Source of the DNA: Pyropia yezoensis
Lineage: Eukaryota > Rhodophyta > Bangiophyceae > Bangiales > Bangiaceae
Direction: 5' to 3'
DNA length: 64,000 nt
Assembly: GCA_009829735.1 (NCBI GenBank)
Contig: CM020620.1
Span: forward strand, 1,240,001-1,304,000
A model generated the notes under the pieces. The model searched no databases. It was not told where the DNA came from and saw only the letters and a program-made list of their open reading frames with translations. Below are positions 18,309 to 48,831 of the stretch, piece after piece; the stretch's first letter is position 1; every line of letters begins with the position of its first letter. Made by a program: the position numbers and the translations under genes.

Positions 18309-18355
18309 GCGAGCAGCTTGCTCCTAACGAGGGCCCTTGAACGGGGTCCTCCCCT

Positions 18356-19489
18356 CTACGGTTGTTGGCGTATAGGGGGTGCACCGGGCTTCAACTCGAT
18401 CCGGTGTTGGGTGGCTCTCATGAGTCCCAATTGGCCATCCCACAACTTGTGATATTGGTCCAAGAGGCGTTCAACTTGAACCCTCAACCTGGGGGGAACA
18501 CCCTCCATGTTCACATGGGGCCGAGGAGAGGCGGCCGACTTGGCTTGGTGCTTCTCCTTTCCGAACTTCGGGTCGCTGCTTGCGCCCGCGTTGAGGGTGA
18601 CCGCTACTACCGGTCCCTCGTGTTGGTCGATATAGCCGAATTTGGCTCCCGACTTGAAGTACTTGGGCGACGAGCTCAGGTTCATCACCTGGATCCTCCA
18701 CGGGACTCCGGCTTTGGAGTCCATCGTGCCAAGGGCAACAAGCACTTGGTGCTTGCGAGCAAGACGGGGGTAAGGGTGCACCAACCCGTTCCCCGTATAA
18801 TCAGTTACAACATCAACGTGCGCCACCGAGTTGGGGGGCAACGTGACTTTACGGGCTAAACGCAGGGTAGCAGTAAACCCTTGCCTCACAGAGAAAACAT
18901 GCTTCGACTGTGAGACTGTCACAGGAGCCACAGACTTTCCCTTACCAAGAGTGGGGATAGTCTCCCCATTCATCAACTTGACCCAGTACCCAGGGCCACA
19001 AATCAAAGGCACTTGTGTTACGACATAAGGGGTACCCAGAAGCAGGGGTACCGATATATTCTCAACTACACCATATGTCACGTCGACCTCATGGGTCCCC
19101 AACCAAGTTGGTAAAGTCACGGCACCAACGATGGGAAGTACCCCGCCATTGATATCGATCAGATGGTCAGCTTTAGACTTCCAGCGTTGGAGCTTCATCT
19201 CCTTTGGTAATAGCGACTTGCGTATCAAGAAGGCTCCTGACCCGGTATCAAGTACGATACGGGCACAACAGGCGCGGCCGGGGGCAAGTTGCACCCGTCC
19301 AGCCACCTGGAAGTTCTCACCCGTCAGCACCGCGATGACCCGACGTGAGTTTACGTTCTTGGGGAGTCCTACCCGAGGTGGGCGGACTCCCTTAGGTCGC
19401 CGCAGTATCCGGCACGGTTGATTCGTCCTCTTGACCCACTTGGCCGAGGATGCCGTTGTGAGCTTCGGACGGCCAGCTCCAACGGTCAT
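18356..19489 (-). CDS. element A protease and start of pol
   Basis: 377 codons. Contains the retropepsin motif LDTGSGAFLI (about residue 81), followed by the usual LLGTPYV element and a linker to RT; it ends with TAG just before the RT frame. Its ATG (19487-19489) overlaps the stop of the zinc-knuckle frame as ATGA, which suggests translation by termination and re-start. Processing of Gag-Pol is the known family role. Confidence 0.75.
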   Translation of the reverse strand: MTVGAGRPKLTTASSAKWVKRTNQPCRILRRPKGVRPPRVGLPKNVNSRRVIAVLTGENFQVAGRVQLAPGRACCARIVLDTGSGAFLIRKSLLPKEMKLQRWKSKADHLIDINGGVLPIVGAVTLPTWLGTHEVDVTYGVVENISVPLLLGTPYVVTQVPLICGPGYWVKLMNGETIPTLGKGKSVAPVTVSQSKHVFSVRQGFTATLRLARKVTLPPNSVAHVDVVTDYTGNGLVHPYPRLARKHQVLVALGTMDSKAGVPWRIQVMNLSSSPKYFKSGAKFGYIDQHEGPVVAVTLNAGASSDPKFGKEKHQAKSAASPRPHVNMEGVPPRLRVQVERLLDQYHKLWDGQLGLMRATQHRIELKPGAPPIRQQP

Positions 19490-21456
19490 TCGTTTCCCGC
19501 CGACTTGGCCTCCGAATCTGAGGACGAAGGGGAAGACGACGAGTCCGAGGACGACGTGTCCGCCCCCTTCGCCGAGGGTGTGGCGACCGCCAGCACCGGT
19601 CGAGACCCACCCTCGCGGTGTGAACGTACTTCGTTCGTAGCCGACTTCTTACTTGCATTCCTAACAAGTTGTTGGATGCGTTTACTCAACTTGGGGCAAT
19701 CATATGCCCAGTGTCCATCGGAGTTGCAGTTCCAACACCGATTGTCAGTTCCCGGAGGGGTCTTCCCAACTGGGGAAGACGAGGAGATACCCTAGGAAGC
19801 TCCCACGGCAGCTACCACCCTCTCCTTGCGGATTCGGCGCGCCTCTCTCAACTCTCTGGCCTGGCGCGCCTCCTCCCGTTCCTTGGCCAACTCGGACTGA
19901 CGCTCCTGGCGTTGTTCCTCCCGCAACTTGCGGTAAGCCTCGCCTCTGCGGTAGGCGAACCTAGCCAACTCGGCCAGGGTCGCCCGGGCAGTGTTATGCT
20001 CCCGGGTCTCCATCCGAACTGACCAATGGAGTCCCTCCACAAACCGACTCTCCACCACGGCTTGTGGATGAAGAAGCCCACAAAGATTGTTGAGCTTACG
20101 GACTCGCTCCGCAAAGGACAACTCGTCCTCCGCCTTTTCCTGATGGGCTTGCGTAAATTCCTCGACTTGAGAAGCCAGCGCCGCTTCATCAACCATGGCT
20201 CTCAACAACCAGTTGACGAGCTCCGAATAGGACGTCACCTCACCCGCGCCTCCACTTGAGGAGCTGGGCATGACGGACATAAGTTCTGTCCGCAGGTCTC
20301 CCTTCGTAAACTCCTGTAGCATGTAGAAAGCCATGCCTTCACTTATGGCATTGTCGTCACAGGCTTTTGTGAAACGACGTAGGAACTCAAAGACACGGAG
20401 GGGGGGAGTTTCATCCCACTCCGCTTTGTGCCCAAAAGAGTGAAGTGCATTCTTCTTGGCACGGCCCATGGCTCGGGCCTGGTCAGGACCATACGCCACC
20501 GACATGTTGTGGAGGGCGTAGGTCTCACAGTCAAAGATCCTCTGGTAGACCGGGTTGGCTACCTGGATCTTGGGCGGCACCTCACGTTGAGGGAACAGCC
20601 GCTGTGGCACTGGGGCAAGTTCACCCTCAGTGCCTGTAGTCCGGCGCGGCGCGCTTGGTGTAGCCGCCGGCGTTTCCGAGGGGAACTCCCCCGTGAAGGG
20701 CGTACGCCCCACCGAGAATGGTGCGGCTCCCACGTTGGGAGTCACAGGGGTCCCCCCCTGTTCGGGGCGACCCGGAATAGGCGTCAGGGGAGATTCCCCC
20801 TGCGCCTGCGGACTCGAAAGCCCCAATCCGGTCTGGACATTAAGGCCATCTGGCAAACTCGCCACAATCTGATTCAGAATAGTATTCGTCATCGTGACCA
20901 CCAGGTCCGGCAAAGTCTGCCGCAACATATTGGTCGCCTCCCGACGGACAGTTTCCGCGAGGACTGGATTGACGACTCCAGTTGAGTCTCGGTCCGCCTC
21001 CGGGAGTCCACCTGAGGGGTAACCACGTTCCTCAGGGGTCTCAACCGGGGGCATGAGCGCGAGCCCATCGCCGACCAACGGAGGTCCGCCGTCCTCCGAA
21101 AGCCTAGTTGGCGACGGCTCCAAGCCAAAGTTGGCTCCAACCCGAGTGGAACCCGCGGGGACAGTCCCCACCCCTTGGGACGTTCCCGTTGAGTATACCA
21201 CACGGTGGCCAGACTTCGGCCCACCCACATCAGAAGTGTCACCCGAGTGAACTCCCGACTGAGTCGAGGTGGCCTGTTGCCCGCCCACACTTCCAGTCCT
21301 GCTGGCTTGAGGGACCTCTAGTCCCTCTGCGACCTCAGGTAAACCCACCTGTGTCTCACCAGTATTCAAAGGCACTGAGGTACGAGCGTCACCCGTGTAC
21401 TCCCCGGACGACGGGGGGTCCGAACTAGCCATGTTGGCTGACGATCCGTATGACAA
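19486..21456 (-). pseudogene. element A gag with internal TAG
   Basis: The capsid frame (19792-21456, 554 codons) has a long Pro/Ser/Gly-rich N-terminal half, a helical capsid region (about 320-510) and an Arg/Glu-rich helix at the end. A TAG at 19792-19794 (context TCC TAG GGT) is followed in the same frame by about 100 codons containing a perfect CCHC knuckle, CWNCNSDGHWAYDC, then a Ser/Asp-rich tail ending at 19486. Capsid and nucleocapsid would be joined if the TAG is read through; otherwise this is a nonsense mutation. Element B has a stop at the same place. Confidence 0.75.
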
Positions 21457-21530
21457 GGTCCAAGTCCACCGTTCCTCTGAGACAGAGGGCCCCCTACACC
21501 CGGGTGCACCCGGAGGTAAAGTTTACCTCT

Positions 21531-21549
21531 GTCCCCTGCTGCTCCACCA
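21531..21549 (-). promoter_or_regulatory. primer-binding site of element A
   Basis: On the minus strand TGGTGGAGCAGCAGGGGAC starts 2 bases after the LTR. The TGG start fits pairing with the CCA end of a tRNA. Nearly the same site is used by element B. The tRNA is not identified. Confidence 0.7.
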
Positions 21550-21551
21550 AG

Positions 21552-22020
21552 TGTGGCAAAAACCACTTGCACACACGGCACCCAAGTTGGGGCGGTGTAC
21601 AAGGGCTGCCTCCCGTGTCGGGGGAACCGGAAGAAGTGCAAGTCGCACACACTCTGTCCCTGTTGTGGGGCAAACCCCCCACTGACACACAAGAGGATGG
21701 GGTGTGGTCCAACAGTTTCTTGGTCGGGACGGGGACGCGGGGCCAAGCCCCGCTGTCCCTCCCCTTATCCTCCCAGGGTCCACTCAGAATCTCGCCACTC
21801 AGAATCTCCCACCCCAGCACCTGCCCACCGGGCCACACGGACATTCAAGACGATAAATGCAGAAAACCCTCAAATCCACGTTGGATTTACTACAAAGCTA
21901 ACTATCCCAAACTTAGGGAATATGGACCCAAATGCAGGGGGAGGAACGGATCAGGCTAGTGGCCTGCCGCCCCTTGCATGGCACGTGTTGCCCCCCTACC
22001 TGAGGGTCAATACTGCCACA
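21552..22020 (-). repeat. LTR of element A (5' in element direction)
   Basis: 469 bp, TGTGGCA...TGCCACA. Would hold the promoter of the element; no TATA box assigned. Confidence 0.9.
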
Positions 22021-22230: not shown

Positions 22231-23289
22231 TTGCTCTCCCGCTTCACTCTCGGGCGGACTGCCATGTTTGAGGCACGCCCTGCCGCACCCCCCGTCGCAT
22301 CTACAGGCGACGGCAATGCCGGCCACGACGACAGTGGAGGTGGAGAATTTGTACCAGGTCAGTGGCAGCTCTTTAAAGAACGTGACGCAAGTGGGACTTT
22401 TGTCAGTGACATTCGATGTCGGCGAAAGCCACAAGCATTCACAATTCCCATCATCATTTTACATGTTGAACCGGCTGAAGGCATTGACACAGAACCACCG
22501 GGCTCTTCCTCCTCCACACCTCCCGACACGCGCACATGGCTGATACGGGGCCCCGTGCGCGGCTATCCGGATGATGCTTGGCGGCTCTCCACGCTTGCCA
22601 CGGTCACGGCCGCGTCTCCCATGCCCCCGCACGAGGTGTACGTGCGCTCCATGACGTGGTTGGCTCCTGGCACCAACGTTGACGTCGATGACGCACACGC
22701 TTCCAGAAGAGCGGTGTTCTTGGCGCGCTGGCCATCTGAAAATTACTGGGATGAGACGACGGCGACGAGCTCGTTTGCCACTGTGAGGCAGCACGACTCT
22801 CTGTCTGAAGAAGACGTTGAGGAAGTGCTGCGACCGGCGTCTGCCAATGTGCGAACGTCTTGCAAGCGCATCTCCGAAGGCTTTGTGGTGCTGGAGCATC
22901 GCCGCAATGCCATCAACGACCCGGTGAACCGGAAGGGCGTTGCAACACTCCTCCGCCAGCGCTCAATTCGTGCACTCAGAGCCTTCCGCAACCGCGGTGC
23001 TGCCAAAATGAGAGCAAGGTGGAACCAACTGATCCGCACGATGGGCGCGGGAGCGGTAGCCGGCATTCGTCGCATTCTGGAGTTGGATCCCTCGCAACCC
23101 TCAAGGGGCACGGGCAAGGGGTCCACGCGCATCCGCTTATCAATGGGGAAGACCCAGATACATTTTCTGACGTCTCGCGAGGAACTTCGCGAGATCCGCA
23201 GTACCAAGTTTGACCGGGCCAGCCGTGTCCAGCACTTCTTCTGCAAAAGACCGCTGCTGCCGCTGCCGCCGCCGTCCGTCGCTGGCTAG
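22231..23289 (+). CDS. hypothetical protein
   Basis: 352 codons, or 341 from the internal ATG at 22264. Family not recognised. The protein has a mixed, globular-looking composition unlike the Arg/Pro shadows nearby. A basic helical segment (about residues 215-270, LRQRSIRALRAFRNRGAAKMRARW) is followed by GKTQIHFLTSREELREIR. No signal peptide or membrane segment. It lies between elements A and B and stops 27 bp before the element B LTR, so its normal 3' end may be displaced. It could also be part of an older element. Confidence 0.45.
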   Translation: MLSRFTLGRTAMFEARPAAPPVASTGDGNAGHDDSGGGEFVPGQWQLFKERDASGTFVSDIRCRRKPQAFTIPIIILHVEPAEGIDTEPPGSSSSTPPDTRTWLIRGPVRGYPDDAWRLSTLATVTAASPMPPHEVYVRSMTWLAPGTNVDVDDAHASRRAVFLARWPSENYWDETTATSSFATVRQHDSLSEEDVEEVLRPASANVRTSCKRISEGFVVLEHRRNAINDPVNRKGVATLLRQRSIRALRAFRNRGAAKMRARWNQLIRTMGAGAVAGIRRILELDPSQPSRGTGKGSTRIRLSMGKTQIHFLTSREELREIRSTKFDRASRVQHFFCKRPLLPLPPPSVAG

Positions 23290-23311
23290 AACGACGCCCC
23301 GCGCCCCATGG

Positions 23312-23316
23312 GGCAG
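23312..23316. repeat. target-site duplication GGCAG (left)
   Basis: The 5 bases directly before the first element B LTR. The identical 5 bases follow the last element B LTR at 48832-48836. The inner LTR at 33673-34033 is followed by GACTG, which does not match. Confidence 0.65.
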
Positions 23317-23679
23317 TGTAGCAATATGGTTGGCCGTATTGCAACCCTAATACTAGGGGGGCTACTTCTAACCCTTAACTTCCAATTTGATAGTTCGTAC
23401 TGGTCACGGTATCTATAAGTTACGTATGACCAGAGGGACTTGCATCTTGGGGTGGAGGGTAGTTAGTAGTGTCTCCGAGGGTTTATAACGTGGGGGCCGG
23501 CGGCGAATCCACCGCCGGCCAAGGTAGAACAACAAACCCCTCCCATTTGGGCTCCCATCTTGGTCCCGTGGCTTGCGCTCCAAGGACAGCAACCTTGGCC
23601 TCCCAGTGACGTTGGTGCCGATCCCCCTTGGTGAGTGTTCCCTGAGAGTGGACGTGCGACGGATCCCTATTGTGCTACA
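23317..23679 (+). repeat. 5' LTR of element B copy 1
   Basis: 363 bp, TGTAGCA...TGCTACA. A TTTATAAC stretch at about 23483-23490 could be a TATA-like element. It differs from the LTR at 48469-48831 by about 4 substitutions. Confidence 0.92.
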
Positions 23680-23680
23680 T

Positions 23681-23699
23681 TGGTGAAGCAGCAGGGGAC
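23681..23699 (+). promoter_or_regulatory. primer-binding site of element B copy 1
   Basis: TGGTGAAGCAGCAGGGGAC, one base after the LTR; 18 of 19 bases match the element A site. Confidence 0.75.
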
Positions 23700-23898
23700 G
23701 GGTTTCCGTCACCCTTGGGGTGACGCCGTCTTCGGCCCTGGCACACGGATAGGGATCCGGTCCTTTTCTTGTACTCGTGGTGTTGCGACCTGATCGATTG
23801 TGTTGAGTTTTTACCTGTGACGGTGATCTACTGTTACTCTCCCCAATCTACCCCCTCGCTCTCTTATTCGTGGTGATTGTTACGTCGGTCGACTGACT

Positions 23899-25494
23899 GT
23901 GACGATGTCTACCCAAGAGACGGGGAACGTTCAAGATGACGGATCGGCGTCGACGCCGACCCCGGAGGTGACTACGGGAACTGGGATCGGGAACCCGATC
24001 GACAACATTGAGACGCCAATGCTTTCCGGTGCCGGATCGACGTTTGGCACGGCTCGGACGGCAGGAGGCGGTTGTCCGCCTCAACTGTCATCGACCGACC
24101 TCACTCCGCCGCCTCCTTCACCAGGGGATTCCCTGATGGCATCATTGGCCCGCATCGAGGCCCGGTTTTCCGGGCTCGACGCCCGTCAAGATCGGACGGA
24201 GGACGCAATGGCAGTGTTGATGTCAACACGCCACACGACGGGACCCCGACGTGTTCCTCCCACACCGGTACGGTTCGAACCGGCCGGACTACTTTCGGAG
24301 TCCACCAGGGTCAACCCCGGTGTTGCTACTCCTGGACAACCCCCGGACACAACGGGGTATGGATCCGACTCGTCGGCTGAGTTGGAACGTAGCCACAGGG
24401 AGCGATACGCTCGGAGCACCCGAAGCGGACTTCACGGACACGACCCGGCGGATACTTACGCCGGTGGAGAGTCGGTTATTGGGGGAGGGGGTACCATCTC
24501 ACAGTACCCCCACGACGAAGGAGGCCAGGCAACTCGGGTTCCCGAGGTGCCGACGCCTGAAGTACCATCTTCAGTGGTGGAAGCTATGACCGCGCAGGTA
24601 ACTGCGAGCCTACTGAAGCGGATGGATTCCGATGAGTTTGCTCATCAACTGGCTAAGCGACTGGATATCCAGGACGCCGACACGGAGATCGTCAACGAGG
24701 TCTTCCGGTCGGTACTGACTCCCGAACGTTATCGTTTGGAGGACCGCTCTACCATCGTATCGGAATCGATGCCTAATACGTCGCATCGGGCGATCCGCTC
24801 TATGCAGTCCCTTATGAAGGGAGTCCCTATGTTCGGGCGGCCGAACGGACGCCCGTTGGCAGTCATCGGCTTCTTGACTAGCTTCAAGGCAGCCGCAGAC
24901 AAGGCGCTTGTCAACGAGGGGCTGGCCCTGGAGATCCTCCCGTTCTTTGTTGATGAACGGGTGCGAGGCATTCTTCGCCAGGCATCCCCGATGCCGGGAA
25001 TGAGGGTCGCGGCCACCCCCATGGATTACCGTGGGATCCTCAAGGAGCTGCTGAGCAGTTACCTCAGTGAGGACAAGTGCGAGGACCACTACCGGGCCCT
25101 GCGCACTGCCACCGCCCAGAGCTGGGAGGATGAGGGGATGTTTGGACGCCGGATCCAAGAGCTCGACTACGAGCTGGGACAGCTCCTCGGAGAAGGGGAG
25201 CTACGGGCCATCCTGTTCGCAGGAGTACCCAACTACGTGCGGACATCCGCTCGGGGAGCCTATACGGCACGGACCAACTTCAGTCGACTGATGCATATGT
25301 GCAAGTCCCTAGGGGACGCCTACCGGGTTCTACACCCGGAGTGTGCCTTGGCCCCGAAGCCCAAGGGTGAGGGAGGCAAGCCCAGTCTTACCCCGGTACC
25401 GAGGCCAGAGAAGGTGGAACGTAAGGCCGCACCAGTACTGGTGGCGACCGATCATCCCCCTATTGGTGAGGATGAACCTCTAGTTGACAAATAG
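23899..25494 (+). CDS. element B Gag, capsid part
   Basis: 531 codons from ATG 23899 (weak context), about 200 bases after the primer-binding site. The first 230 residues are Pro/Ser/Thr-rich. A helical capsid-like region follows (about 260-490), with RPLAVIGFLTSFKAAADKAL, a long LKELLSSYLSED block and LGQLLGEGELRAILFAGVP. No zinc knuckle; that is in the next ORF. Ends with TAG in context AAA TAG GGC. The frame then stays open for 57 more codons to a TGA at 25669-25671. Confidence 0.75.
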   Translation: MTMSTQETGNVQDDGSASTPTPEVTTGTGIGNPIDNIETPMLSGAGSTFGTARTAGGGCPPQLSSTDLTPPPPSPGDSLMASLARIEARFSGLDARQDRTEDAMAVLMSTRHTTGPRRVPPTPVRFEPAGLLSESTRVNPGVATPGQPPDTTGYGSDSSAELERSHRERYARSTRSGLHGHDPADTYAGGESVIGGGGTISQYPHDEGGQATRVPEVPTPEVPSSVVEAMTAQVTASLLKRMDSDEFAHQLAKRLDIQDADTEIVNEVFRSVLTPERYRLEDRSTIVSESMPNTSHRAIRSMQSLMKGVPMFGRPNGRPLAVIGFLTSFKAAADKALVNEGLALEILPFFVDERVRGILRQASPMPGMRVAATPMDYRGILKELLSSYLSEDKCEDHYRALRTATAQSWEDEGMFGRRIQELDYELGQLLGEGELRAILFAGVPNYVRTSARGAYTARTNFSRLMHMCKSLGDAYRVLHPECALAPKPKGEGGKPSLTPVPRPEKVERKAAPVLVATDHPPIGEDEPLVDK

Positions 25495-25667
25495 GGCCAC
25501 CTGTTGCTACCGGCGACGCCGGTGATTGATGAGCACGGTACTGTAGCGTACATCGCCCCGGCTGAGACCCAGTTCCAGGTCAGCGAGGGCACGGGACGTC
25601 GCGTCCCGTACGTACGGACTACGGGGTACTCCCCGTTGACGGGTAACCCCCACCAGCCCCTGCCTAC

Positions 25668-26087
25668 ATGAGCAGTACGTACGGAGGCACCTCCGCAGAT
25701 TGCGGGCCGACCCAACCGGTTGGGGGAGTCCATGTTCCGGTTGACCCAAGGACCCAAGGCCTACCGGGAGCAGGCACTCGGGCGCCCGAGGGAGGCAACC
25801 GCAGCTACGGGGCTACCCCGATGCGAACTCAAGGAGGGACCGGCACGTCCGGATGTATGTTGTGTGGGGATCCACAGCACTGGGTGTCTTCCTGCCCACT
25901 CATCCCCGAGGAGTCTCGGCGGGCAGCGGCGCAACGCAAGGCATCCACCGGGGGGTATCCCGCCAGAGCACCCGGACCCGCACCGGGTAGGCAGCCAGCT
26001 CCAGGTGGCGTACTGGCCGTCGAGGAGGCACCTCCGCAGCCGGATGTCCCGGCGGACAGCACCCTACCAAGGGCGGGAAACGAGTAA
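25668..26087 (+). CDS. element B nucleocapsid zinc-knuckle ORF
   Basis: 139 codons with one CCHC knuckle, CMLCGDPQHWVSSC, in a Pro/Gly/Arg-rich chain. Its ATG overlaps the TGA ending the post-TAG capsid frame (ATGA at 25668-25671). It ends TAA 8 bases before the pol ATG. The knuckle binds nucleic acid in this family. Making it as a separate ORF is odd; usually it is the C-terminus of Gag. Confidence 0.65.
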   Translation: MSSTYGGTSADCGPTQPVGGVHVPVDPRTQGLPGAGTRAPEGGNRSYGATPMRTQGGTGTSGCMLCGDPQHWVSSCPLIPEESRRAAAQRKASTGGYPARAPGPAPGRQPAPGGVLAVEEAPPQPDVPADSTLPRAGNE

Positions 26088-26095
26088 GAGGAAGG

Positions 26096-29000
26096 ATGAC
26101 CGGGGGGCGCTGGGGTAACCCAAGCAAGCCACCCCGGAGTACCGCGGGGAAAGCCCCACGGAGAGCGCGGTTGAGCCGACGCCGCATCAACCCCCGGGTA
26201 CACCTTCCGGCCCCGACGACACGGCGTCAGGGGATTGATGACCAACCACCAAGGTTGGGTGGAGAGGACGGGAAGCCCCGTCACATGGAACCAGACAAGG
26301 GCCCTGTTCAGGATGCCCGAGCTACACCGGATATCGGTGTAGGCCACGTGCTGTTTACCTTGGAGAACTTCAAGGTATCAGCCACACTGGGGGTTGACCC
26401 CCAGTCGACACGATCGTACTACCCTGTACTGGATACAGGGGCTGGACCCAACCTTATTCGAAAGGATACCCTCCCGGACAGGTGGCTTTCGCGAGTCAGA
26501 GTGACTCGGGGACCCACCATCAAGGACGCGAATGGTCGCCTCATTCGTACGACCGCAGCGATGTCGCTGCGGGTTACCATCGGGGAACTCACCACGGAAG
26601 TCGACTTCCTGGTGTGTGAGACCCTATCGGTGCCCTGCATACTGGGGTGCACCTTCATCAACGTTCACGTTGATGCAATCCGGCCAGGCCGGAGGACCGT
26701 CGAGCTTCAAGAAGCCGACGGGACGAAGCGAGGACACACGGCTATCGTCAGGGACCTGACGCTACAAGGGAGCCACGTTAACGTGGCTGAGGTGTACGCA
26801 AGTGTCGAGCCGAAGACACTTCGGTTGGCCAAGCGAACTCGCTTTGAGCCGTTGTCGGAGACAGTCCTCCCGGTTAACTGTGACCTCGCAGGCATCTGCA
26901 GAGTCAAGTCCAACTTGCGGACGTACAAGCGCCATGGGTTGACCATGGCCAACGGTCTCATAGACCTCCCATCAGGAGGGTCGTCCCTCCTAGTGATGGC
27001 GAACTATCGCCGTAAGGCAGTCACCCTCCCGAAGGGAGCTATCCTCGGGATTGCCGAGCTCTACGAAGGAGATATCCTTACCCCTGACAAGGAAGGTCAA
27101 GTGGACCCACTTGAGGTGCTGGCGGTCGCCGAGACCACCGAGCGACAGCAACCCGATGAGGGGAAGCCTAGTCGACCATCATTACCGGCGGATATTCCGC
27201 CGAAGGACCAAGAAGCATTGAAGGCACTGGCCGAGGCTGACCTCGACCACCTTCCCCCTTCCGTAGCCGAAGGGGTACGACGGATGTTAAGAAAGCATGA
27301 CGTCATGTGGACAGGCGGAGCCCTGGGTACCATTGGGGCATCCCAACATCGTATTGACCTGGTACCAGGCGCACGCCCCGCCCGGTCACAAACGCACCGA
27401 GCGGGACCTATGCAACGAGAGATCGTTGATGGAAAAGTGAAGAGGATGAGTGAAGCGAAGGTGATACGACCTTCGATGTCGGAGTGGGGTGCCCCAGTCG
27501 TTATCGTACCGAAGAAGGATCAAACCCCTCGGTTTTGCATCGATTATCGACGCCTCAACTTGGTTACCAAGAAGGACTCCTACCCTTTACCAAGGATGGA
27601 TGAATGCATCGACTTCCTGGTGGAAGCTACGGTGTTTACCACCATCGACTGCAATGCCGGATACTGGCAGATCCCGGTGGCGGACGAGGATATCCCCAAG
27701 ACGGCATTCGTCTGTCACAGTGGGGTGTACGAGTTCCACTGGATGCCCTTCGGATTGTCCAACGCCCCCGCTACATTCCAGCGGGCTATCGACATCATAC
27801 TGTCGGGGGTGAAGTGGCGTAACTGCCTAGTGTACCTCGATGACGTCATCGTCTTCTCGCGTAACATGGATGACCATGTTCAACATGTTGACGAGGTACT
27901 CACCCTCTTGCGGAACGCCGGGGTAACCCTGCGTCTGAAGAAGTGCGCCTTCTTCCAACAGACGGTCGAGTATCTGGGCCACCAGATAACCCCTGGTAAA
28001 CTAGGGGTACTCGAAGCCAATACCCGGGCACTCCGGGATGCCCGGTTCCCTAACACCCAGACGCAGCTCAAGAGCTTCCTGGGAATGTGCAATGTATACC
28101 GACGGTTCGTCAAGGACTTCGCTCGGATAGCTAAACCGTTAACGGTTCTTACGAGCAGTACCCTGCCCAACGTACTCCAACCCCCTTCGCCTAGCGAAGA
28201 GGAGGCATTCGAGTCGCTGAAGCGAGCCCTACTATCCCCACCCGTCCTTGCGATACCGCACCGACGGGGTACCTTCGTCATCGATGTCGATGCGTGCGAC
28301 ACCCAAGTGGGATGCACCCTGCTACAGGGGGAGACGTTGATCGGTACCGATAACGTTATCCCGGACCTACGTCCGGTAGGATACTTCAGCCGGACACTCA
28401 ACCCGGCTGAGCGTAACTATAGTGCCACCGAGCGTGAATGCCTCTGAGTTATATGGGCAGTGCAACTGCTCCATCCATACCTGGAGGGCTCCAGGTTCAT
28501 CGTGAGGTCCGACCACGAACCCCTACGATGGCTCCTCAACCTTGGTGACAAGGATTCCGATAGCCATGGGAGGCTAGCCCGATGAAGGCTAAAAATGGCC
28601 GAGCACGACTACCGTACCGTGTATAAGGCTGGGTCAACCCACCATCTCGGAGACGCATTGTCTCGACTCGACACCCCGAGCGGGGATACCCGCCCGGTGG
28701 ACGAGGACATCCCGGTGGTACCGGTGTGCATGGTGGGTAACGCTACCCAAGGTATGGTTGACCATACCATGGCACACCGAGCATGCCCACTAACCCTCGC
28801 GGACTTCCGCGAGGCACAAGCCAATGACGACGACTGTAGACGTCATCGCGCTAACCTCCTGGCCGGTACGGCCGGCATCTTCTCCGAGAACGAAGACGGA
28901 CTCATATACCGGCGGGCACCCGCCGATGGACGACATCAAGTCGTGGTTCCCGTGTCCTTACGGCAAGCCGTCATGGAACGAGAACACGAGAACCCCACAG

Positions 29001-30262
29001 CCGGACACCCGGGGGGTTCACGTATGTTCGCAGCAATGCGAAGGTTCTTCTACTGGCCAGCAATGGCCGTCGACGTGGTCGACCACGTAGGGGGATGCCA
29101 CCCCTGTGCGCGTAACCGCATGAGTCTACATAGGCAGGCGTCTGCCATGAAGCTATTCCCACCCGATGGGCCCAACGAGCAAGTCGCTATCGACATACTC
29201 GGGCCACTTCCGGTAACGGAAGAAGGGAACAGGTACATCCTGCTCATGTCTGACCGCTTCACTAAGCTGTCACGAGCGGCAGCCATCCCGAATGATACGG
29301 CATACACCATCATGAACGCAGTGGTTGACCACTGGATCAGTGCATTCGGAGTCATGAAGCAACTCCTCTCCGACAACGGAGCAAACCTTACGTCAGCATT
29401 CTGCACTAAGGTCCTGGGCATGTTCGGTATCGAACCACGTCGGGCATCCGACTACCACTCGCAAACCAACGGGCAGGTGGAGCGGTTCAACCGCACCATC
29501 GTCAAGATGCTACAGTGCTACGTGGCAGAGCACACGAACACTTGGGACAGGCTTCTGTCCGTACTCACCCTGGCATACAATGCCAGGCCGCATCGGAGCA
29601 CGAACATCGCTCCGCTGGAGTGGGTCATGCCACTAGGCGTCGGTAACCTGACGCTGCCACCAGGCAGGTGCACTCGGTATGATACACCGAAAGGCCGACC
29701 GGCCGAACGTATCCACCTAGCTTGGTTGGCCAAGCTATCGTGGATGATCCCTAAGCTCAAGGGTGCCCTTGACAGAACACAACTTCGATATAAGAAGAAC
29801 TTCGACGCCCGGTTACGGGTGCGCAACGCAACCCTGATGACAGGTGACTGGGTCTACATCAGACGCCAGAAGTCGTGGGGGAACAAGCTCATGCAACCGG
29901 TCAAGGGACCGTACCAGATTCTCCACAGAGATGACCACTCTGTTATCTTACACTCCGATACGGAGATCCAACTCATTAGTGTGAATGATGTCACACCTGC
30001 TCCGAAGCCGGAACAGCCTCAGCCGGTACCGGCTGGGTTGCTACATGAAGCTCTTACAACCCACCGGTCAGATGACCCGGTGGGACCGGATGGGATTCCA
30101 TACCAAGTAGAGAGCGTGGTCGGACACAGCGACCCGAACCTACCAGGACCCTGGTACGTGAAGGTTATGTGGGTCGGATACGACTCACCCACCTGGGAAC
30201 AGGCGGCGAATATACCCCGCCAACTCCTCATGTCTTACATGAGGCGACGACGCCTACTGTAA
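26096..30262 (+). pseudogene. element B pol (protease-RT-RNase H-integrase-chromodomain) with two TGA codons
   Basis: 1389 codons in one frame. Protease LDTGAG with Asp113. RT: FCIDYRRLN, MPFGLSNAPATFQR, LVYLDD (Tyr580-Asp583). RNase H: VIDVDACDTQVG, ATERECL, VRSDHEPLRWL, HLGDALSRL. Integrase: HHCC finger (EHENPTAGH...CHPC), AIDILGPLP, LLSDNGANL, and E in NGQVERFN. C-terminal chromodomain at about 1330-1385 (YQVESVVGH, VKVMWVGYDSPTWE), which in chromoviruses guides insertion to chromatin. TGA codons at 28445-28447 (codon 784) and 28583-28585 (codon 830) fall inside RNase H. The second stands where relatives usually have Trp (LAR-stop-RLK). Both are also in copy 2. Either this family is dead, or the stops are read through. 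Confidence 0.88.
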
Positions 30263-30299
30263 CAACCCAACCGACACCGACTTCGGCTGTTGGGGGGTG

Positions 30300-30470
30300 A
30301 GGCTTATACCTACTAAGTAGGGCGTGACATGGTTACGGCAGACTTAGGTTTTTAAGTCAAATCAGACTTAGGTTTCTAAGTCGAACCAAGCTTAGGCAAC
30401 TAAGTAAAACCTGAACCTTAATAAGTTAACTTAAAGGTAAAGGCTAACTTCGATAATATCGAAGTAACTA
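30300..30470. repeat. AT-rich cluster of tandem hairpins
   Basis: Three tandem units of about 24-25 bp are each a hairpin: GACTTAGGTTTTTAAGTC (30341-30358), GACTTAGGTTTCTAAGTC (30365-30382) and CTTAGGCAACTAAG (30391-30404). A further near-palindrome ACTTCGATAATATCGAAGT lies at 30447-30465. The AT content contrasts with the GC-rich surroundings. It sits between the end of pol and the end of the opposite-strand ORF, so a role in ending both transcripts is plausible. Present in copy 2. Confidence 0.75.
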
Positions 30471-30715
30471 GGGGGCTTACACGGGAGGATGATCTCCCCT
30501 AGCCAAGACACAAAGTGAGGGAGGATGACCTCCCCAAGCATGAACCAACCGGAAGAAGTTGGGCGGGAGGCAAGGCACTACTGAGCCAGAAGGGGTACTC
30601 CCCAGGGCAGCAAACAGAGGCAAGCAATGCCCCAAAGGGGATGAGTTTATACTCACTACTACCCGGCCACCATAAGGGTCACCGGGGCCCTCTCCCGCAC
30701 TAACAATAGCGCTCC

Positions 30716-33081
30716 TCAGTGGGTAGACCCACTGCCCGAGGGAGGCCACTCATGCGTAAGCGCGTATGTCTCCGTGCTCCACCGGTCGGCAATCTCACGA
30801 CGGTCAATCACCCGAGTTACCTCGGTGCATAGCTGGACGAGGGTGCTGCGGCCAGCCTCCACGTCCTCCAGAGCTTTCTGAAGGCGGTCAAGCACGCCAC
30901 CGAAGCAACGCGCTGACCCAACTAGCGCAGCACCTGGGGGGATATCCCCCCAGCTAACAGAGAGACCCTCCCGCATTGCGCGGGCAACAAGGGCGTCAAC
31001 GCCCTCATACCAGAGACGGGGACCCCCGTCTTGTATGACAGGGGCGGGAGCGGACACTGGCGCAGCCAGAGGAGCCAGAGGAGCCGACACGGCTACCACC
31101 GGAGCCGGTGGCACCTGATACGAGGCTCGGTAGGACCCTACCGAAGGGGCTCCACCGTAACCCCGGCGGAGCTCCGCCCGACGACGGGACACTTCACGCT
31201 CCCCACCCGCAGAGCCCCACTCTCGGGGACGACGGCCAACCGCCGCCGGTATCGGGTTACCGAACCACGGGGCAAGGACCTGAAGAGGGTCATGGATAAC
31301 CATGGGAATACCCAGGTCAGGAACGGCCTCGGTGGACGCCCACCCATGGCAACTAGGCTCACCCGGCTGAGTACGCCGGATACGCATCGAGTGACGAGGC
31401 AAGGGGGTAGCCCCAGCCCGCGGGTCCCGGTACGGGGGAAGGGCCAACACCCCAGCCCAGTTCACGGCATCGTGAACAGCCAGCAGGGCCTCGAACTCCC
31501 GGGCCAACCCGGTCTTGGCAGCTATCAGGTCCACGCCCAACTGCGCGATGTGCCGACGGACACCCGTCGGAAGATGAAACAGGCGCCCCTGCCGGCGGAC
31601 GGACAGCAAGAAGGAGGACGCCTGCCCGAGGGTAGCCTGAAGGGTGAAGGTACCCTGCAACGGGTGGACCGGCCGGGAGGCCAACACACTCCCGAAGTAT
31701 CGGAGACAGGAGCCGGTGTCAAACCGGAAAGCAGGGGCGGGTTCCCACCCCTCCTGCCATAGCGGCGGGCGCACGGGAGTGTATACCGGCGCACGACCGT
31801 TGCCGGTCTGCAACGCACACGCTATATCCGTGCGAAACGCATCCGCCATGACACCATGGTTACGTCGCCAGCTTGACGCCGACTTCAACCCCGCCATAGG
31901 CGGGTAGGGAGCCGTCAACGACAGATACGGGGATACCCCCGGGTAGTAATCAAAGTCGGGATACCGACCGGTACTGCCCACCGTCTCCCCAAACGCAACC
32001 GGCTCCGCCGCCGCCGCAATCCCCCGAGCACTAGCCGGGTAGTCAATCTCCCGCGGCAACGCGGGAGCAATCAGGTCGCATACCCCGAAGGCGGGGTCGA
32101 GGTAGACCTCACCCCGTCCCACCCGAGTACGCCAGAGCTGCGCATGCCGGTCGTCCGGCTGACTCAGGATCCAATGGTGTTCCACTCGCACCGCGTTCGG
32201 CTGGTTGACCAGCCGCACCAGCTCCCGCTCCCAACTCGGGTCCACCTTGACGCGCCGGGAGGACTCTCCACGGGGATGGGGCAGGTGGAAGTCCACCCGC
32301 ATCCGCCCATCGGACTCCATTGACTCTTGCACAGTCAGGGCTCGAACCCGAGCCACCAAGTCGAACATCGACATGGCGGGTTGACCCGCCGCCACGGCGA
32401 CGCCGCCACCCAACGGGGCAACCCGGGCAGGACCAGGAAGAATAGGGGGCGCCGGGGATGCCCCACCGGAAGAGGGGCCGGCGCCGGAGTCGCACGCGGC
32501 CGAGGAGGAAGAAGAAGGACGCGTTTCCGGAGTAACTACCGGAGTCCACAGCCATCGGGGTAGACCCACCTTGACCACCAGACGCCCGCGGCACCGCGGG
32601 CAGAGCATCGCCGCCACCCCGGACCCGACGTGGGTACCACGGGGGCAGCACGGGTAGACCCGCTACCCGCCGCAGCGGACACACCAACCGGGCGGGCACC
32701 CGCGCCGTCTTGACCCGCCGGGCTGGCCGGGTGCCGCCACCACCATCCGCCACGCCGGCGACACCGTCTTGAGGTAGAGCCACGCCGGTACCGGCGACAG
32801 AAGCCATCCGGGCCGCCGGAGGAGAAGCGGTAGAAGCCACCGCTGCACGCGGTTTGTCCGCCACACGACGGAGCCGTCGTGCCGCTACACACGGACGACA
32901 ACCCGCCCGGCGCGCCGTCCGGGGCCACACGAACGGTCACCCGGTCGTCCTCGTCCCCCGACGAGCTCGCTAGGAAGCACTCGGCGGCGGTGGCGGAGAC
33001 GGGAACGTCGTCCACCATCACCTCTTCCCCCTCTTCAGGCAGGAGGTCGTCCTTGCCCCCGGGTACCTGGGGGTCCGACAT
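30716..33081 (-). CDS. opposite-strand ORF of element B, unknown function
   Basis: Two overlapping frames on the minus strand: 32536-33081 (starts MSDPQVPGGKDD, acidic) and 30716-32617 (633 codons to the stop). One frame change is needed near 32540-32617 to join them. About 450 residues at the C-terminal side have balanced, globular composition (for example YPDFDYYPGVSPYLSLTAPY and FSSVLASRPVHPLQG-like blocks), quite unlike antisense shadows. No membrane segment, signal peptide, zinc finger or enzyme motif is seen, so it is not an envelope protein. It converges with pol and has about 590 bp between its start and the 3' LTR for a promoter. Both copies keep it with one Ala/Val difference in the C-terminal frame. 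Extra antisense ORFs at this place are known in some plant LTR elements; I see no link in sequence. Confidence 0.65.
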
Positions 33082-33654
33082 GGTGTAACCGGGGTGGTAG
33101 TGGCGCCCCTTGCAGAAAAGCCGAGGCCGGCTCGACCCGGTACGAGGAACACTCGCGCGGACGAGCCAGGGAAGCGCGGGCGCCGGCGCTTATGACCACA
33201 AAACGGCCACGAGAAGCGCCTCAGGCGCGCGGGTCAACCGCGCGCCCCACGAGGCTACGAACGGGCTCCACCCAGGCACCTGGGCGGGCCGGGGCCACAC
33301 CCCCGTACGGGGCAACCAAGAGGGGTTCACCCCGAAAACGCCCCGCGAAAAGCGGGAGCGGCCGCCCCCATTCACTCGGTAACACGAGAGGGGCTCCCCT
33401 ACCACCAGACACCTGGTGGCGGAGCCGCTTGCACCACCCCTCGGAAAGGGGGGTCGTGAACAGAACCCGCATCGGGAATTTAACGGTCCGGAAAACGGAT
33501 CGTGTGTGTACCACACAAAAGGGGGCACCCCCCTCAGACAACCTCGAAAAGGGGTGTCTGGCGCGACGGGGTGCAAAGCCCCACCCGACTGGTAAACGGT
33601 CACGCGACCCACTTACATTCGGTAACCCGAATGCAACTCGACCGAGGACGGGCC
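33082..33654. other. noncoding stretch before the 3' LTR
   Basis: No convincing ORF. Short direct and inverted motifs, and several differences from copy 2 that are one-base homopolymer changes. It probably holds the promoter of the opposite-strand ORF. Confidence 0.4.
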
Positions 33655-33659
33655 GAATC

Positions 33660-33672
33660 TAAGGGGGGGATA
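33660..33672 (+). promoter_or_regulatory. polypurine tract
   Basis: AAGGGGGGGATA-type purine run directly before the 3' LTR, as needed for plus-strand DNA priming. Confidence 0.75.
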
Positions 33673-34033
33673 TGTAGCAATATGGTTGGCCGTATTGTAA
33701 CCCTAATACTAGGGGGGCTACTTCTAACTCTTAACTTCCAATTTGATAGTTTCGTACTGGTCACGGTATCTATAAGTTACGTATGACCAGAGGGACTTGC
33801 ATCTTGGGGTGGAGGGTAGTTAGTAGTGTCTCCGAGGGTTTATAACGTGGGGGCCGGCGGCGAATCCACCGCCGGCCAAGGTAGAACAACAAACCCTCCC
33901 ATTTGGGCTCCCATCTTGGTCCCGTGGCTTGCGCTCCAAGGACAGCAACCTTGGCCTCCCGGTGACGTTGGTGCCGATCCCTTGGTGAGTGTTCCCTGAG
34001 AGTGGACGTGCGACGGATCCCTATTGTGCTACA
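33673..34033 (+). repeat. 3' LTR of element B copy 1
   Basis: 361 bp, TGTAGCA...TGCTACA. Followed by GACTG, not by the GGCAG that precedes the 5' LTR. Confidence 0.9.
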
Positions 34034-34743
34034 GACTGTCACTGGTGACTGTTGCCGCCACGGTGGTCGCGTTCATGGCTATTGCGTCTTTCCCGTCGAG
34101 CACTATGGCTCAACGGAGGGCTCACACGGATCCAGGGACACGTAGTCGACCTTTTGATAATTATGAACGCGCAGCCTCGTGATCGTTTCTTTTCGCAATA
34201 ATTTACTCTATAAGTTTGACATGATAATTGTTACCTCTCAACCCTGAAGTGGAGTGCAAAGAGCATGAGCAGAAAGAGCTCGTCAAGCTGCATCGACAGT
34301 TATGAGAAAATACGAAACTTGGTCGCGCAAAAGAATGAGTCTTCTATTGTGAACCGCCACAGATACCTATCTCGATAGATCGATAAGTACTAAATGAATC
34401 GACGCCTACCTAAGTACGTGATAGACTGCGGATCACGCAGTAGTTTGCGCCGCGAATACAGTCATGACCCGGTTATATGGCACCCTTGCGCTCTTTGTAG
34501 CCCCGTTCCAGCGATGCAGTGTCGTGGCGTCAGCTCCCAGACGTCGCCGGCTCGCTGGCGATCGTTCCCCTTTCCACTGCGATCACTGTGAATTCAAGCC
34601 CAAAGTCATTGTCGATCGCGTGATTCTGAGGCCGAGCTCGATTACATGCGTTCGGTCGACCGCATGCAGCAGGGCCCAATTCTGTACTTGACTTGTTTGT
34701 GGATGACGTCACATTTGCTGCCGCGAGCCGGGGCAACTCCGAG
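34034..34743. other. intergenic, no gene seen
   Basis: About 700 bases, AT-richer than average. No frame with a recognisable domain. Confidence 0.5.
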
Positions 34744-37946: not shown

Positions 37947-38446
37947 NNNNNNNNNNNNNNNNNNNNNNNNNNNNNNNNNNNNNNNNNNNNNNNNNNNNNN
38001 NNNNNNNNNNNNNNNNNNNNNNNNNNNNNNNNNNNNNNNNNNNNNNNNNNNNNNNNNNNNNNNNNNNNNNNNNNNNNNNNNNNNNNNNNNNNNNNNNNNN
38101 NNNNNNNNNNNNNNNNNNNNNNNNNNNNNNNNNNNNNNNNNNNNNNNNNNNNNNNNNNNNNNNNNNNNNNNNNNNNNNNNNNNNNNNNNNNNNNNNNNNN
38201 NNNNNNNNNNNNNNNNNNNNNNNNNNNNNNNNNNNNNNNNNNNNNNNNNNNNNNNNNNNNNNNNNNNNNNNNNNNNNNNNNNNNNNNNNNNNNNNNNNNN
38301 NNNNNNNNNNNNNNNNNNNNNNNNNNNNNNNNNNNNNNNNNNNNNNNNNNNNNNNNNNNNNNNNNNNNNNNNNNNNNNNNNNNNNNNNNNNNNNNNNNNN
38401 NNNNNNNNNNNNNNNNNNNNNNNNNNNNNNNNNNNNNNNNNNNNNN
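37947..38446. other. assembly gap, 500 N
   Basis: Exactly 500 N. The gap ends inside the 5' LTR of element B copy 2. The round length suggests a placeholder. Confidence 0.95.
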
Positions 38447-45511: not shown

Positions 45512-47877
45512 TCAGTGGGTAGACCCACTGCCCGAGGGAGGCCACTCATGCGTAAGCGCGTATGTCTCCGTGCTCCACCGGTCGGCAATCTCACGACGGT
45601 CAATCACCCGAGTTACCTCGGTGCATAGCTGGACGAGGGTGCTGCGGCCAGCCTCCACGTCCTCCAGAGCTTTCTGAAGGCGGTCAAGCACGCCACCGAA
45701 GCAACGCGCTGACCCAACTAGCGCAGCACCTGGGGGGATATCCCCCCAGCTAACAGAGAGACCCTCCCGCATTGCGCGGGCAACAAGGGCGTCAACGCCC
45801 TCATACCAGAGACGGGGACCCCCGTCTTGTATGACAGGGGCGGGAGCGGACACTGGCGCAGCCAGAGGAGCCAGAGGAGCCGACACGGCTACCACCGGAG
45901 CCGGTGGCACCTGATACGAGGCTCGGTAGGACCCTACCGAAGGGGCTCCACCGTAACCCCGGCGGAGCTCCGCCCGACGACGGGACACTTCACGCTCCCC
46001 ACCCGCAGAGCCCCACTCTCGGGGACGACGGCCAACCGCCGCCGGTATCGGGTTACCGAACCACGGGGCAAGGACCTGAAGAGGGTCATGGATAACCATG
46101 GGAATACCCAGGTCAGGAACGGCCTCGGTGGACGCCCACCCATGGCAACTAGGCTCACCCGGCTGAGTACGCCGGATACGCATCGAGTGACGAGGCAAGG
46201 GGGTAGCCCCAGCCCGCGGGTCCCGGTACGGGGGAAGGGCCAACACCCCAGCCCAGTTCACGGCATCGTGAACAGCCAGCAGGGCCTCGAACTCCCGGGC
46301 CAACCCGGTCTTGGCAGCTATCAGGTCCACGCCCAACTGCGCGATGTGCCGACGGACACCCGTCGGAAGATGAAACAGGCGCCCCTGCCGGCGGACGGAC
46401 AGCAAGAAGGAGGACGCCTGCCCGAGGGTAGCCTGAAGGGTGAAGGTACCCTGCAACGGGTGGACCGGCCGGGAGGCCAACACACTCCCGAAGTATCGGA
46501 GACAGGAGCCGGTGTCAAACCGGAAAGCAGGGGCGGGTTCCCACCCCTCCTGCCATAGCGGCGGGCGCACGGGAGTGTATACCGGCGCACGACCGTTGCC
46601 GGTCTGCAACGCACACGCTATATCCGTGCGAAACGCATCCGCCATGACACCATGGTTACGTCGCCAGCTTGACGCCGACTTCAACCCCGCCATAGGCGGG
46701 TAGGGAGCCGTCAACGACAGATACGGGGATACCCCCGGGTAGTAATCAAAGTCGGGATACCGACCGGTACTGCCCACCGTCTCCCCAAACGCAACCGGCT
46801 CCGCCGCCGCCGCAATCCCCCGAGCACTAGCCGGGTAGTCAATCTCCCGCGGCAACGCGGGAGCAATCAGGTCGCATACCCCGAAGGCGGGGTCGAGGTA
46901 GACCTCACCCCGTCCCACCCGAGTACGCCAGAGCTGCGCATGCCGGTCGTCCGGCTGACTCAGGATCCAATGGTGTTCCACTCGCACCGCGTTCGGCTGG
47001 TTGACCAGCCGCACCAGCTCCCGCTCCCAACTCGGGTCCACCTTGACGCGCCGGGAGGACTCTCCACGGGGATGGGGCAGGTGGAAGTCCACCCGCATCC
47101 GCCCATCGGACTCCATTGACTCTTGCACAGTCAGGGCTCGAACCCGAGCCACCAAGTCGAACATCGACATGGCGGGTTGACCCGCCACCACGGCGACGCC
47201 GCCACCCAACGGGGCAACCCGGGCAGGACCAGGAAGAATAGGGGGCGCCGGGGGATGCCCCACCGGAAGAGGGGCCGGCGCCGGAGTCGCACGCGGCCGA
47301 GGAGGAAGAAGAAGGACGCGTTTCCGGAGTAACTACCGGAGTCCACAGCCATCGGGGTAGACCCACCTTGACCACCAGACGCCCGCGGCACCGCGGGCAG
47401 AGCATCGCCGCCACCCGGACCCGACGTGGGTACCACGGGGGCAGCACGGGTAGACCCGCTACCCGCCGCAGCGGACACACCAACCGGGCGGGCACCCGCG
47501 CCGTCTTGACCCGCCGGGCTGGCCGGGGTGCCGCCACCACCATCCGCCACGCCGGCGACACCGTCTTGAGGTAGAGCCACGCCGGTACCGGCGACAGAAG
47601 CCATCCGGGCCGCCGGAGGAGAAGCGGTAGAAGCCACCGCTGCACGCGGTTGTCCGCCACACGACGGAGCCGTCGTGCCGCTACACACGGACGACAACCC
47701 GCCCGGCGCGCCGTCCGGGGCCACACGAACGGTCACCCGGTCGTCCTCGTCCCCCGACGAGCTCGCTAGGAAGCACTCGGCGGCGGTGGCGGAGACGGGA
47801 ACGTCGTCCACCATCACCTCTTCCCCCTCTTCAGGCAGGAGGTCGTCCTTGCCCCCGGGTACCTGGGGGTCCGACAT
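45512..47877 (-). CDS. opposite-strand ORF of element B copy 2
   Basis: Frames 47131-47877 (248 codons from MSDPQVPGGKDD) and 45512-47263 (583 codons). Here the N-terminal frame stays open much further than in copy 1 because homopolymer indels differ, which shows how much of the break in copy 1 depends on single bases. A frame change is still needed near 47131-47263. No domain recognised. Confidence 0.65.
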
Positions 47878-48468: not shown

Positions 48469-48831
48469 TGTAGCAATATGGTTGGCCGTATTGTAACCCT
48501 AATACTAGGGGGGCTACTTCTAACTCTTAACTTCCAATTTGATAGTTCGTACTGGTCACGGTATCTATAAGTTACGTATGACCAGAGGGACTTGCATCTT
48601 GGGGTGGAGGGTAGTTAGTAGTGTCTCCGTGGGTTTATGACGTGGGGGCCGGCGGCGAATCCACCGCCGGCCAAGGTAGAACAACAAACCCCTCCCATTT
48701 GGGCTCCCATCTTGGTCCCGTGGCTTGCGCTCCAAGGACAGCAACCTTGGCCTCCCAGTGACGTTGGTGCCGATCCCCCTTGGTGAGTGTTCCCTGAGAG
48801 TGGACGTGCGACGGATCCCTATTGTGCTACA
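48469..48831 (+). repeat. 3' LTR of element B copy 2
   Basis: 363 bp, TGTAGCA...TGCTACA, followed by GGCAG at 48832-48836. Confidence 0.92.

What the first reader, a model, noticed from the sequence alone, without database searches (positions are those of the whole stretch)
30716..33081. Long opposite-strand ORF conserved in both copies of a Ty3/gypsy element
Seen: between pol and the 3' LTR, element B carries on the minus strand frames totalling about 2.4 kb, kept in copy 2 (45512-47877) with one amino-acid change in the C-terminal part. The C-terminal 450 residues look like a folded protein, not a GC shadow. Known: most Ty3/gypsy elements have only gag and pol; a few plant elements carry antisense ORFs at this place. 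Inference: a gene of its own, possibly regulating the element or captured from the host; no domain recognised.
Basis: partly seen in the sequence, partly recalled or inferred. Interest (0 to 1): 0.75.

Follow-up and report, generated by a model that had tools for sequence, protein, structure and literature searches.

The report
Antisense gene in nori jumping element
A family of virus-like jumping genes in a nori seaweed carries, on the strand opposite to its own genes, an extra protein gene of an unclassified family that selection has kept working across distant element lineages and that has relatives in a second seaweed species; what the protein does is not known.

Summary
The frame is real, but not for the reason given. 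The host is very probably Pyropia yezoensis (scaffold sizes match). Both window copies carry the antisense frame broken and are probably one insertion assembled twice, so their agreement proves little. Elsewhere in the genome it is one 789-codon ORF, complete from ATG to stop in 35 of 50 aligned copies and antisense to integrase in all 62 loci examined. It behaves as coding: dN/dS 0.45 among 50 copies and 0.30-0.43 between loci at 51-94% amino-acid identity (integrase 0.21 and 0.09-0.24); no internal indel in 44 of the 50; homologues in Pyropia vietnamensis, 46-51% identical over the alignment. Pfam, NCBIfam and PDB sequence searches gave nothing significant; two structure predictions failed. 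By composition it looks soluble (acidic N-terminus, almost no lysine, no strongly hydrophobic stretch). Best reading: an accessory gene of a Bangiales Ty3/gypsy lineage, in the slot known from plants and fungi (Grande gene23, Retand, Boty brtn), with no match to the Retand TRP28 domain. Nuclear regulation of the element is a guess by analogy. No host-gene source was seen. My searches of open-licence papers showed no report from red algae.

The parts
30716..33081 (-). antisense accessory ORF (aORF) of window copy 1, broken in its N-terminal third; one 789-aa ORF in 35 of 50 aligned copies
30716..32617 (-). 633-aa open piece of the aORF: conserved core and C-terminal helical part
   Evidence: homologues
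32536..33081 (-). 181-aa open piece of the aORF starting at the ATG used in intact copies (acidic N-terminus)
31247..32251 (-). part of the aORF taken as conserved core (VKVDPSW to WFGNPIP, L004 residues 279-613)
45512..47877 (-). the same aORF in window copy 2
23317..23679 (+). 5' LTR of copy 1 (TGTAGC...GCTACA)
33673..34033 (+). 3' LTR of copy 1
48469..48831 (+). 3' LTR of copy 2
23899..25494 (+). gag ORF (named by position only; a zinc-knuckle-like C-x2-C-x4-H-x4-C follows in the ORF 25668-26087)
   Evidence: motif read by eye
26096..28447 (+). pol part 1: protease (below cut-off), reverse transcriptase, start of RNase H
28595..30262 (+). pol part 2: integrase, weak chromodomain match
30339..30411 (+). 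24-nt tandem repeat between pol and the aORF stop, in the stretch where copies differ most by indels
37947..38446 (.). 500-N scaffold gap directly before copy 2

Best explanation
The feature is a genuine protein-coding accessory gene of one Ty3/gypsy lineage of Bangiales red algae, on the strand opposite to gag-pol between pol and the 3' LTR. Shown: a ~789-aa frame under purifying selection, in constant orientation beside integrase in three well-separated lineages of one genome, with protein homologues in a second species. Inferred: it is expressed from an antisense promoter in or near the 3' LTR, and the protein serves the element, most likely as a soluble, probably nuclear factor that modulates the element's own RNA, silencing or integration, as proposed (not proven) for antisense ORFs of plant elements. 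I give about 0.95 to 'real protein gene', 0.85 to 'serves the element' and 0.35 to 'nuclear regulator'. The confidence below is for an accessory protein gene of the element.
For: Frame: 52 of 70 scored matches have an open frame of at least 800 codons and no stop inside the match (counted). Of 50 aligned copies (one of them, L004, being the reference) 44 have no internal indel in 2.37 kb and 35 are complete from ATG to stop. Selection: dN/dS 0.45 over 50 copies and 0.39 over 20, against 0.21 for integrase of those 20 elements. Polymorphisms shared by two or more copies have N/S 0.44 of the expectation under the same mutation spectrum (p = 3.2e-10), integrase 0.11. Between loci at 51-94% aa identity dN/dS is 0.30-0.43 (23 pairs), integrase tail 0.09-0.24 (15 pairs). 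Homologues: P. vietnamensis proteins and unnamed contigs (alignments 19, 41, 57). Place: integrase antisense and past the aORF's C-terminal end in 62 of 62 loci (59 places), and LTR sequence upstream of its start in 30 of 30 loci L001-L030. Co-inheritance: aORF and integrase distances correlate over 20 elements (Pearson 0.52, 20 of 2000 permutations as high).
Against: No transcript, protein or phenotype was seen. Constraint is about two- to fourfold weaker than on integrase, and two spacer segments approach neutrality (0.67, 0.76); the four closest pairs between loci reach 0.39-0.64. The mirror frame of the opposite strand also falls below 1 (0.53, 0.56), though it holds 962 stops. The copies compared are the best-scoring ones of a capped list (70 of 3252 candidates), which favours intact frames. 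Both structure models failed (mean pLDDT 31.4 and 34.6), so a compact fold is not shown. The genomic surroundings of the P. vietnamensis homologues could not be seen. A second Ty3 element in the same window shows no such gene, so Ty3 elements in this genome do not generally need it. Nothing here tests nuclear location or regulation.
Confidence: 0.85

Rival explanations
1. A host gene captured by the element, carried as a passenger or still doing a host-like job.
For: GC content 0.68-0.71 against 0.58-0.61 for gag-pol, the different strand, and the lack of any significant transposon domain.
Against: No relative outside elements among the loci examined (62 of 62 beside integrase). No named relative outside Bangiales in the protein searches (about 8000 candidates scored each) and none in viral or prokaryote contigs. 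Presence in well-split lineages means any capture is old. The plus-strand A excess at fourfold sites is shared with gag-pol, which suits long residence (no host genes were taken as control).
Confidence: 0.12
2. The frame is incidental: a GC-rich antisense shadow, or an antisense regulatory RNA whose open frame has no protein product.
For: The region is GC-rich, and two other frames of more than 200 codons (243 aa sense, 273 aa antisense) overlap it. Antisense transcripts of retroelements may act as RNA (review PMC7264820, passages).
Against: Longest frame 825 codons in L004 against a shuffle maximum of 414. dN/dS below 1 in this frame, with the four out-of-register frames at 1.09-1.62. Protein homologues in another species with a matching core. 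No Rfam match over 23000-34500.
Confidence: 0.03
3. A separate transposon nested in the element and carried along.
For: It is a self-contained gene on the other strand.
Against: No convincing terminal inverted repeats around it (the nine inverted pairs found are 15-20 nt and 75-89% complementary); no transposase domain; same orientation beside integrase in 62 of 62 loci.
Confidence: 0.03
4. An envelope-like or structural third gene, inverted.
For: It lies in the env position between pol and the 3' LTR.
Against: Antisense orientation; no strongly hydrophobic stretch (best 19-residue Kyte-Doolittle mean 1.53, in an Ala/Pro linker); a separate gag-position ORF is present.
Confidence: 0.04

Closest known systems
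Antisense additional ORFs between pol and 3' LTR (aORF-3R) of plant Ty3/gypsy elements: maize Grande gene23, rice RIRE2, Silene Retand, Phaseolus PvRetro13 (PMC7264820, passages)
   Same: Position, orientation, presence in most copies examined, conservation across related species, unknown function.
   Different: Red algal host; no significant Pfam domain. Those proteins themselves were not compared with it. For Grande the review reports an own promoter and a nuclear protein; neither was testable here.
Retand lineage TRP28 (PF04195) antisense proteins (PMC11963269, passages)
   Same: [quoted passage not shown] a tandem repeat lies nearby.
   Different: No PF04195 match. The paper reports Retand in eudicots and Liliopsida and not in other plant groups.
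Boty-like elements of Botrytis cinerea with antisense gene brtn (named in PMC7264820 and PMC8365987, passages; the original paper was not seen)
   Same: Antisense extra gene in a gypsy element outside land plants.
   Different: Protein not compared; fungal host.
HTLV-1 HBZ (named in PMC11963269 passages)
   Same: Antisense gene of an LTR-bearing reverse-transcribing element.
   Different: Animal retrovirus; no sequence relation tested; [quoted passage not shown]

Membership tests
Ty3/gypsy LTR retrotransposon | paired LTRs with TG...CA ends | tested here: met
   TGTAGC...GCTACA, 98.1% identical in copy 1
Ty3/gypsy LTR retrotransposon | pol order protease-RT-RNase H-integrase | tested here: met
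   Pfam matches in that order over two frames; RT, RNase H and integrase pass their cut-offs, none of three protease models does
Ty3/gypsy LTR retrotransposon | chromodomain after integrase (chromovirus branch) | tested here: inconclusive
   PF00385 E 0.039, 14.3 bits against cut-off 25.1
aORF-3R class (antisense ORF between pol and 3' LTR) | antisense, between pol and 3' LTR | tested here: met
   integrase antisense past its C-terminal end in 62 of 62 loci; LTR upstream of its start in 30 of 30 loci L001-L030, 0 of 20 loci L051-L070 and 1 of 12 loci L071-L082, the pieces of the last two groups being mostly too short to show it
aORF-3R class (antisense ORF between pol and 3' LTR) | kept in most copies and across species | tested here: met
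   52 of 70 best-scoring matches open (capped list); P. vietnamensis homologues, surroundings not visible
aORF-3R class (antisense ORF between pol and 3' LTR) | antisense transcript from its own promoter | not testable with these tools
   no RNA data
Retand antisense proteins | TRP28 domain PF04195 | tested here: not met
   no PF04195 match; only DUF6214 below cut-off
Env-like third gene | sense orientation and transmembrane segment | tested here: not met
   antisense; hydropathy maximum 1.53 (no dedicated predictor run)
Captured host gene | homologous host gene outside elements | tested here: inconclusive
   none among 62 loci; searches capped

The most novel reading that the evidence does not exclude
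An unclassified protein family, seen so far only in Bangiales, evolved independently of the plant and fungal antisense genes into the same slot. That would make antisense accessory genes a convergent solution of Ty3/gypsy elements, for example a counter-silencing or self-limiting factor made from the opposite strand.
Probability: 0.3. Interest if true: 0.75.

Novelty: new variant of a known kind. Interest (0 to 1): 0.55.

Why it matters
Most Ty3/gypsy elements do without a third gene (general knowledge). Antisense accessory genes are described in plants and fungi with no agreed function (PMC7264820, passages). A selected, high-copy example in red algae with no recognised domain suggests that the arrangement recurs, and gives a large set of natural copies (down to about 51% identity within one genome) with which to find the functional residues. 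It also points to a protein family likely missed in a crop seaweed genome, whose gene models were predicted from the repeat-masked sequence (PMC7423979, passages).

Tried and rejected
Profile searches: Pfam, NCBIfam (window pieces only), PDB sequences (none at E up to 1; best E 0.78) and Rfam gave nothing significant. A recurrent weak DUF6214 match (E 0.014-0.086, below cut-off) was not followed. Structure: two AlphaFold2 jobs failed (mean pLDDT 31.4 and 34.6); only residues 514-576 of the 587-residue piece formed a segment above 50 in the first, so no fold search was run. Reach: viral contigs and prokaryote genome contigs gave no relative. GC shadow, RNA-only, nested transposon and envelope readings were weighed and set low, as given under rivals. 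Agreement of the two window copies was set aside as evidence. Literature: five searches naming algae and three on antisense genes elsewhere showed no listing of such a gene in red algae; I saw listings only, apart from passages of the four papers cited, and the library holds open-licence papers only.

Full report
What is there. The window is G000:C3:1240001-1304000 of a 107.5-Mb assembly held in 11 contigs; C1, C2 and C3 are 43.6, 34.3 and 29.4 Mb. These equal the three scaffolds of the Pyropia yezoensis genome paper (PMC7423979, passages), so I take the host to be that nori species. The element has LTRs at 23317-23679 and 33673-34033, a gag-position ORF, pol in two frames with protease, reverse transcriptase, RNase H and integrase, and then, on the minus strand, the reported frames of 181 and 633 aa.

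The observation. Coordinates and lengths are right. Of 587 C-terminal residues compared between the window copies, 7 differ: six in the first 8, which I take as out of register, and one at residue 30. The frame in the window is broken in its N-terminal third. In most other copies examined it is one ORF of 789 aa starting at the ATG that corresponds to 33081. The window copies' reverse transcriptase frame is also shorter (818 codons) than in many other copies (1423).

Why the two window copies count for little. They differ by 5 substitutions but 15 indels of one or two bases over 10.39 kb, mostly in short runs of one base, which looks like consensus error. Copy 2 starts directly after a 500-N gap. 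The left flank of copy 1 ends in the five bases with which the right flank of copy 2 begins. These flanks, joined, match two related places across the junction (C1:17733682-17733896 at 90% and C3:7314128-7314345 at 85%). The sequence right of copy 1 belongs to a different repeat with 41 matches, the window's own included. The simplest reading is one insertion assembled twice; a tandem arrangement is not excluded.

Is it coding? The longest open frame in the region is 825 codons in L004 and 648 in the window, against shuffle maxima of 414 and 412 in 500 shuffles each. The genome search scored 70 of 3252 candidates and all 70 matched; 52 of them have an open frame of at least 800 codons and no stop, 9 have a stop in the match (counted). 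Of the 50, which include the reference L004 itself, 44 have no internal indel and 35 are complete from ATG to stop with no indel or stop; two of the other 15 fail only because an aligned end was trimmed. These are the best-scoring copies, so intactness is overstated for the family. Measured against window copy 1 over 28 copies, indels are 0.00 per 100 bp per copy in every 150-bp bin from 30719 to 32368, 0.33-3.33 in the N-terminal part where window copy 1 itself is broken, 13.8 in the bin with the tandem repeat past the stop, and 0.26-1.76 upstream of the ATG; the integrase end has almost none, and one bin past the stop (30419-30568) has only 0.02.

dN/dS over all pairs of the 50 is 0.45. In the other frames it is 1.09, 1.43, 1.11, 1.62 and, for the mirror frame of the opposite strand, 0.53 with 962 stops. 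Integrase pieces of 20 of the same elements give 0.21; the antisense ORF in those 20 gives 0.39. Polymorphisms seen in more than one copy have N/S 0.44 of the expectation under the same mutation spectrum including CpG (p = 3.2e-10), singletons 0.76 (p = 0.0015); integrase gives 0.11 and 0.61. That fits selection acting through replication, with decay after insertion. By segment the ratio is 0.31-0.43, except for codons 121-220 (0.67) and 621-700 (0.76).

Deeper lineages. Searches with homologues found further families in the same genome (capped lists). Open frames of eight loci (L004, L006, L072, L073, L079-L082) give 28 pairs: 23 at 51-94% amino-acid identity with dN/dS 0.30-0.43, L004-L006 at 96% with 0.37, and the four closest at 97-98% with 0.39-0.64. 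Synonymous sites of the most distant pairs are near saturation (pS about 0.62-0.65). Integrase tails of six of these loci give 0.09-0.24 over 15 pairs. Integrase lies antisense past the C-terminal end of the ORF in 62 of 62 loci (30 close ones, the 20 further aligned ones, and L071-L082); three of the last 12 repeat places, so these are 59 places. LTR sequence lies upstream of the ORF start in 30 of 30, 0 of 20 and 1 of 12 of these groups; the pieces held in the last two groups are mostly too short to show it. Over 20 elements aORF and integrase distances correlate (Pearson 0.52, Spearman 0.48, 20 of 2000 permutations as high).

Outside this genome. Three rounds against 5.8 billion proteins, with about 8000 candidates scored each, found 7, 9 and 20 proteins at E up to 0.001, 0.1 and 1: hypothetical proteins of Pyropia vietnamensis (Bangiales) and unnamed contigs. 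Identity of the P. vietnamensis proteins is 46-51% over the alignment, 49-61% over the core alignment, and 32-59% by the tool's local measure. Several of their gene models lack parts of the core, which I take as false introns. A tree of 17 sequences on 385 columns has three well-supported groups: the window's subfamily, the L071/L072 lineages, and P. vietnamensis with one unnamed protein. Under midpoint rooting P. vietnamensis lies outside the P. yezoensis lineages; the root is unsure, so whether the lineages predate the species split is open. Viral contigs and prokaryote genomes gave no relative.

What kind of protein. Lysine is almost absent against arginine (K/(K+R) 0.01-0.06; 0.25-0.33 in gag-pol), and no 19-residue stretch exceeds a hydropathy of 1.53. 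No significant domain. Both structure predictions are too poor to use as wholes. A second Ty3 element in the window (15415-22020, minus strand; parts recognised by eye) has its integrase frame running into its LTR, and no antisense frame of 180 aa or more between the two.

How it most likely works. Shown: a selected protein gene that belongs to the element. Inferred: transcription from an antisense promoter in or near the 3' LTR, and a role for the element, most likely in the nucleus. The inference rests on the plant cases: in PMC7264820 (passages) Grande gene23 is reported to have its own promoter and a nuclear protein, and in PMC11963269 (passages) a DNA-binding regulatory role is proposed for TRP28 proteins. 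Membership in the Retand family by domain is not supported: no PF04195 match. The position class fits.

Novelty. A case of a known arrangement with an unrecognised protein, in a group of hosts where my searches listed no such report.

Noticed in passing
23317-48831: Copies 1 and 2 appear to be one insertion assembled twice around a 500-N gap: shared 5-bp duplication on the outer flanks, related sites elsewhere that join those flanks without the element, and indel-dominated differences.
   Followed up: yes
G000, reverse transcriptase hits: Many same-orientation pairs of near-identical elements lie about 5-10 kb apart in the assembly; some may be the same gap artefact as in the window.
   Followed up: no
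34034 onward: The sequence right of copy 1's 3' LTR is the edge of another repeat; 35 of 41 matches start at its first to third base.
   Followed up: partly
15415-22020: A second Ty3/gypsy element on the minus strand (LTRs 98.1% identical) with gag, protease, RT and integrase frames recognised by eye and no antisense frame of 180 aa or more between integrase and LTR.
   Followed up: partly
30339-30411: 24-nt tandem repeat between pol and the antisense ORF stop, in the stretch with the most indels between copies.
   Followed up: partly
G000: 142 of the 150 scored RT matches have the same score, suggesting identical RT proteins and a very recent burst of this family.
   Followed up: no
30716-33081: Fourfold sites of the antisense gene are nearly free of A on its own strand (0.05-0.07 A, 0.17-0.29 T): an A excess on the plus strand as in gag-pol but stronger.
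   Followed up: partly
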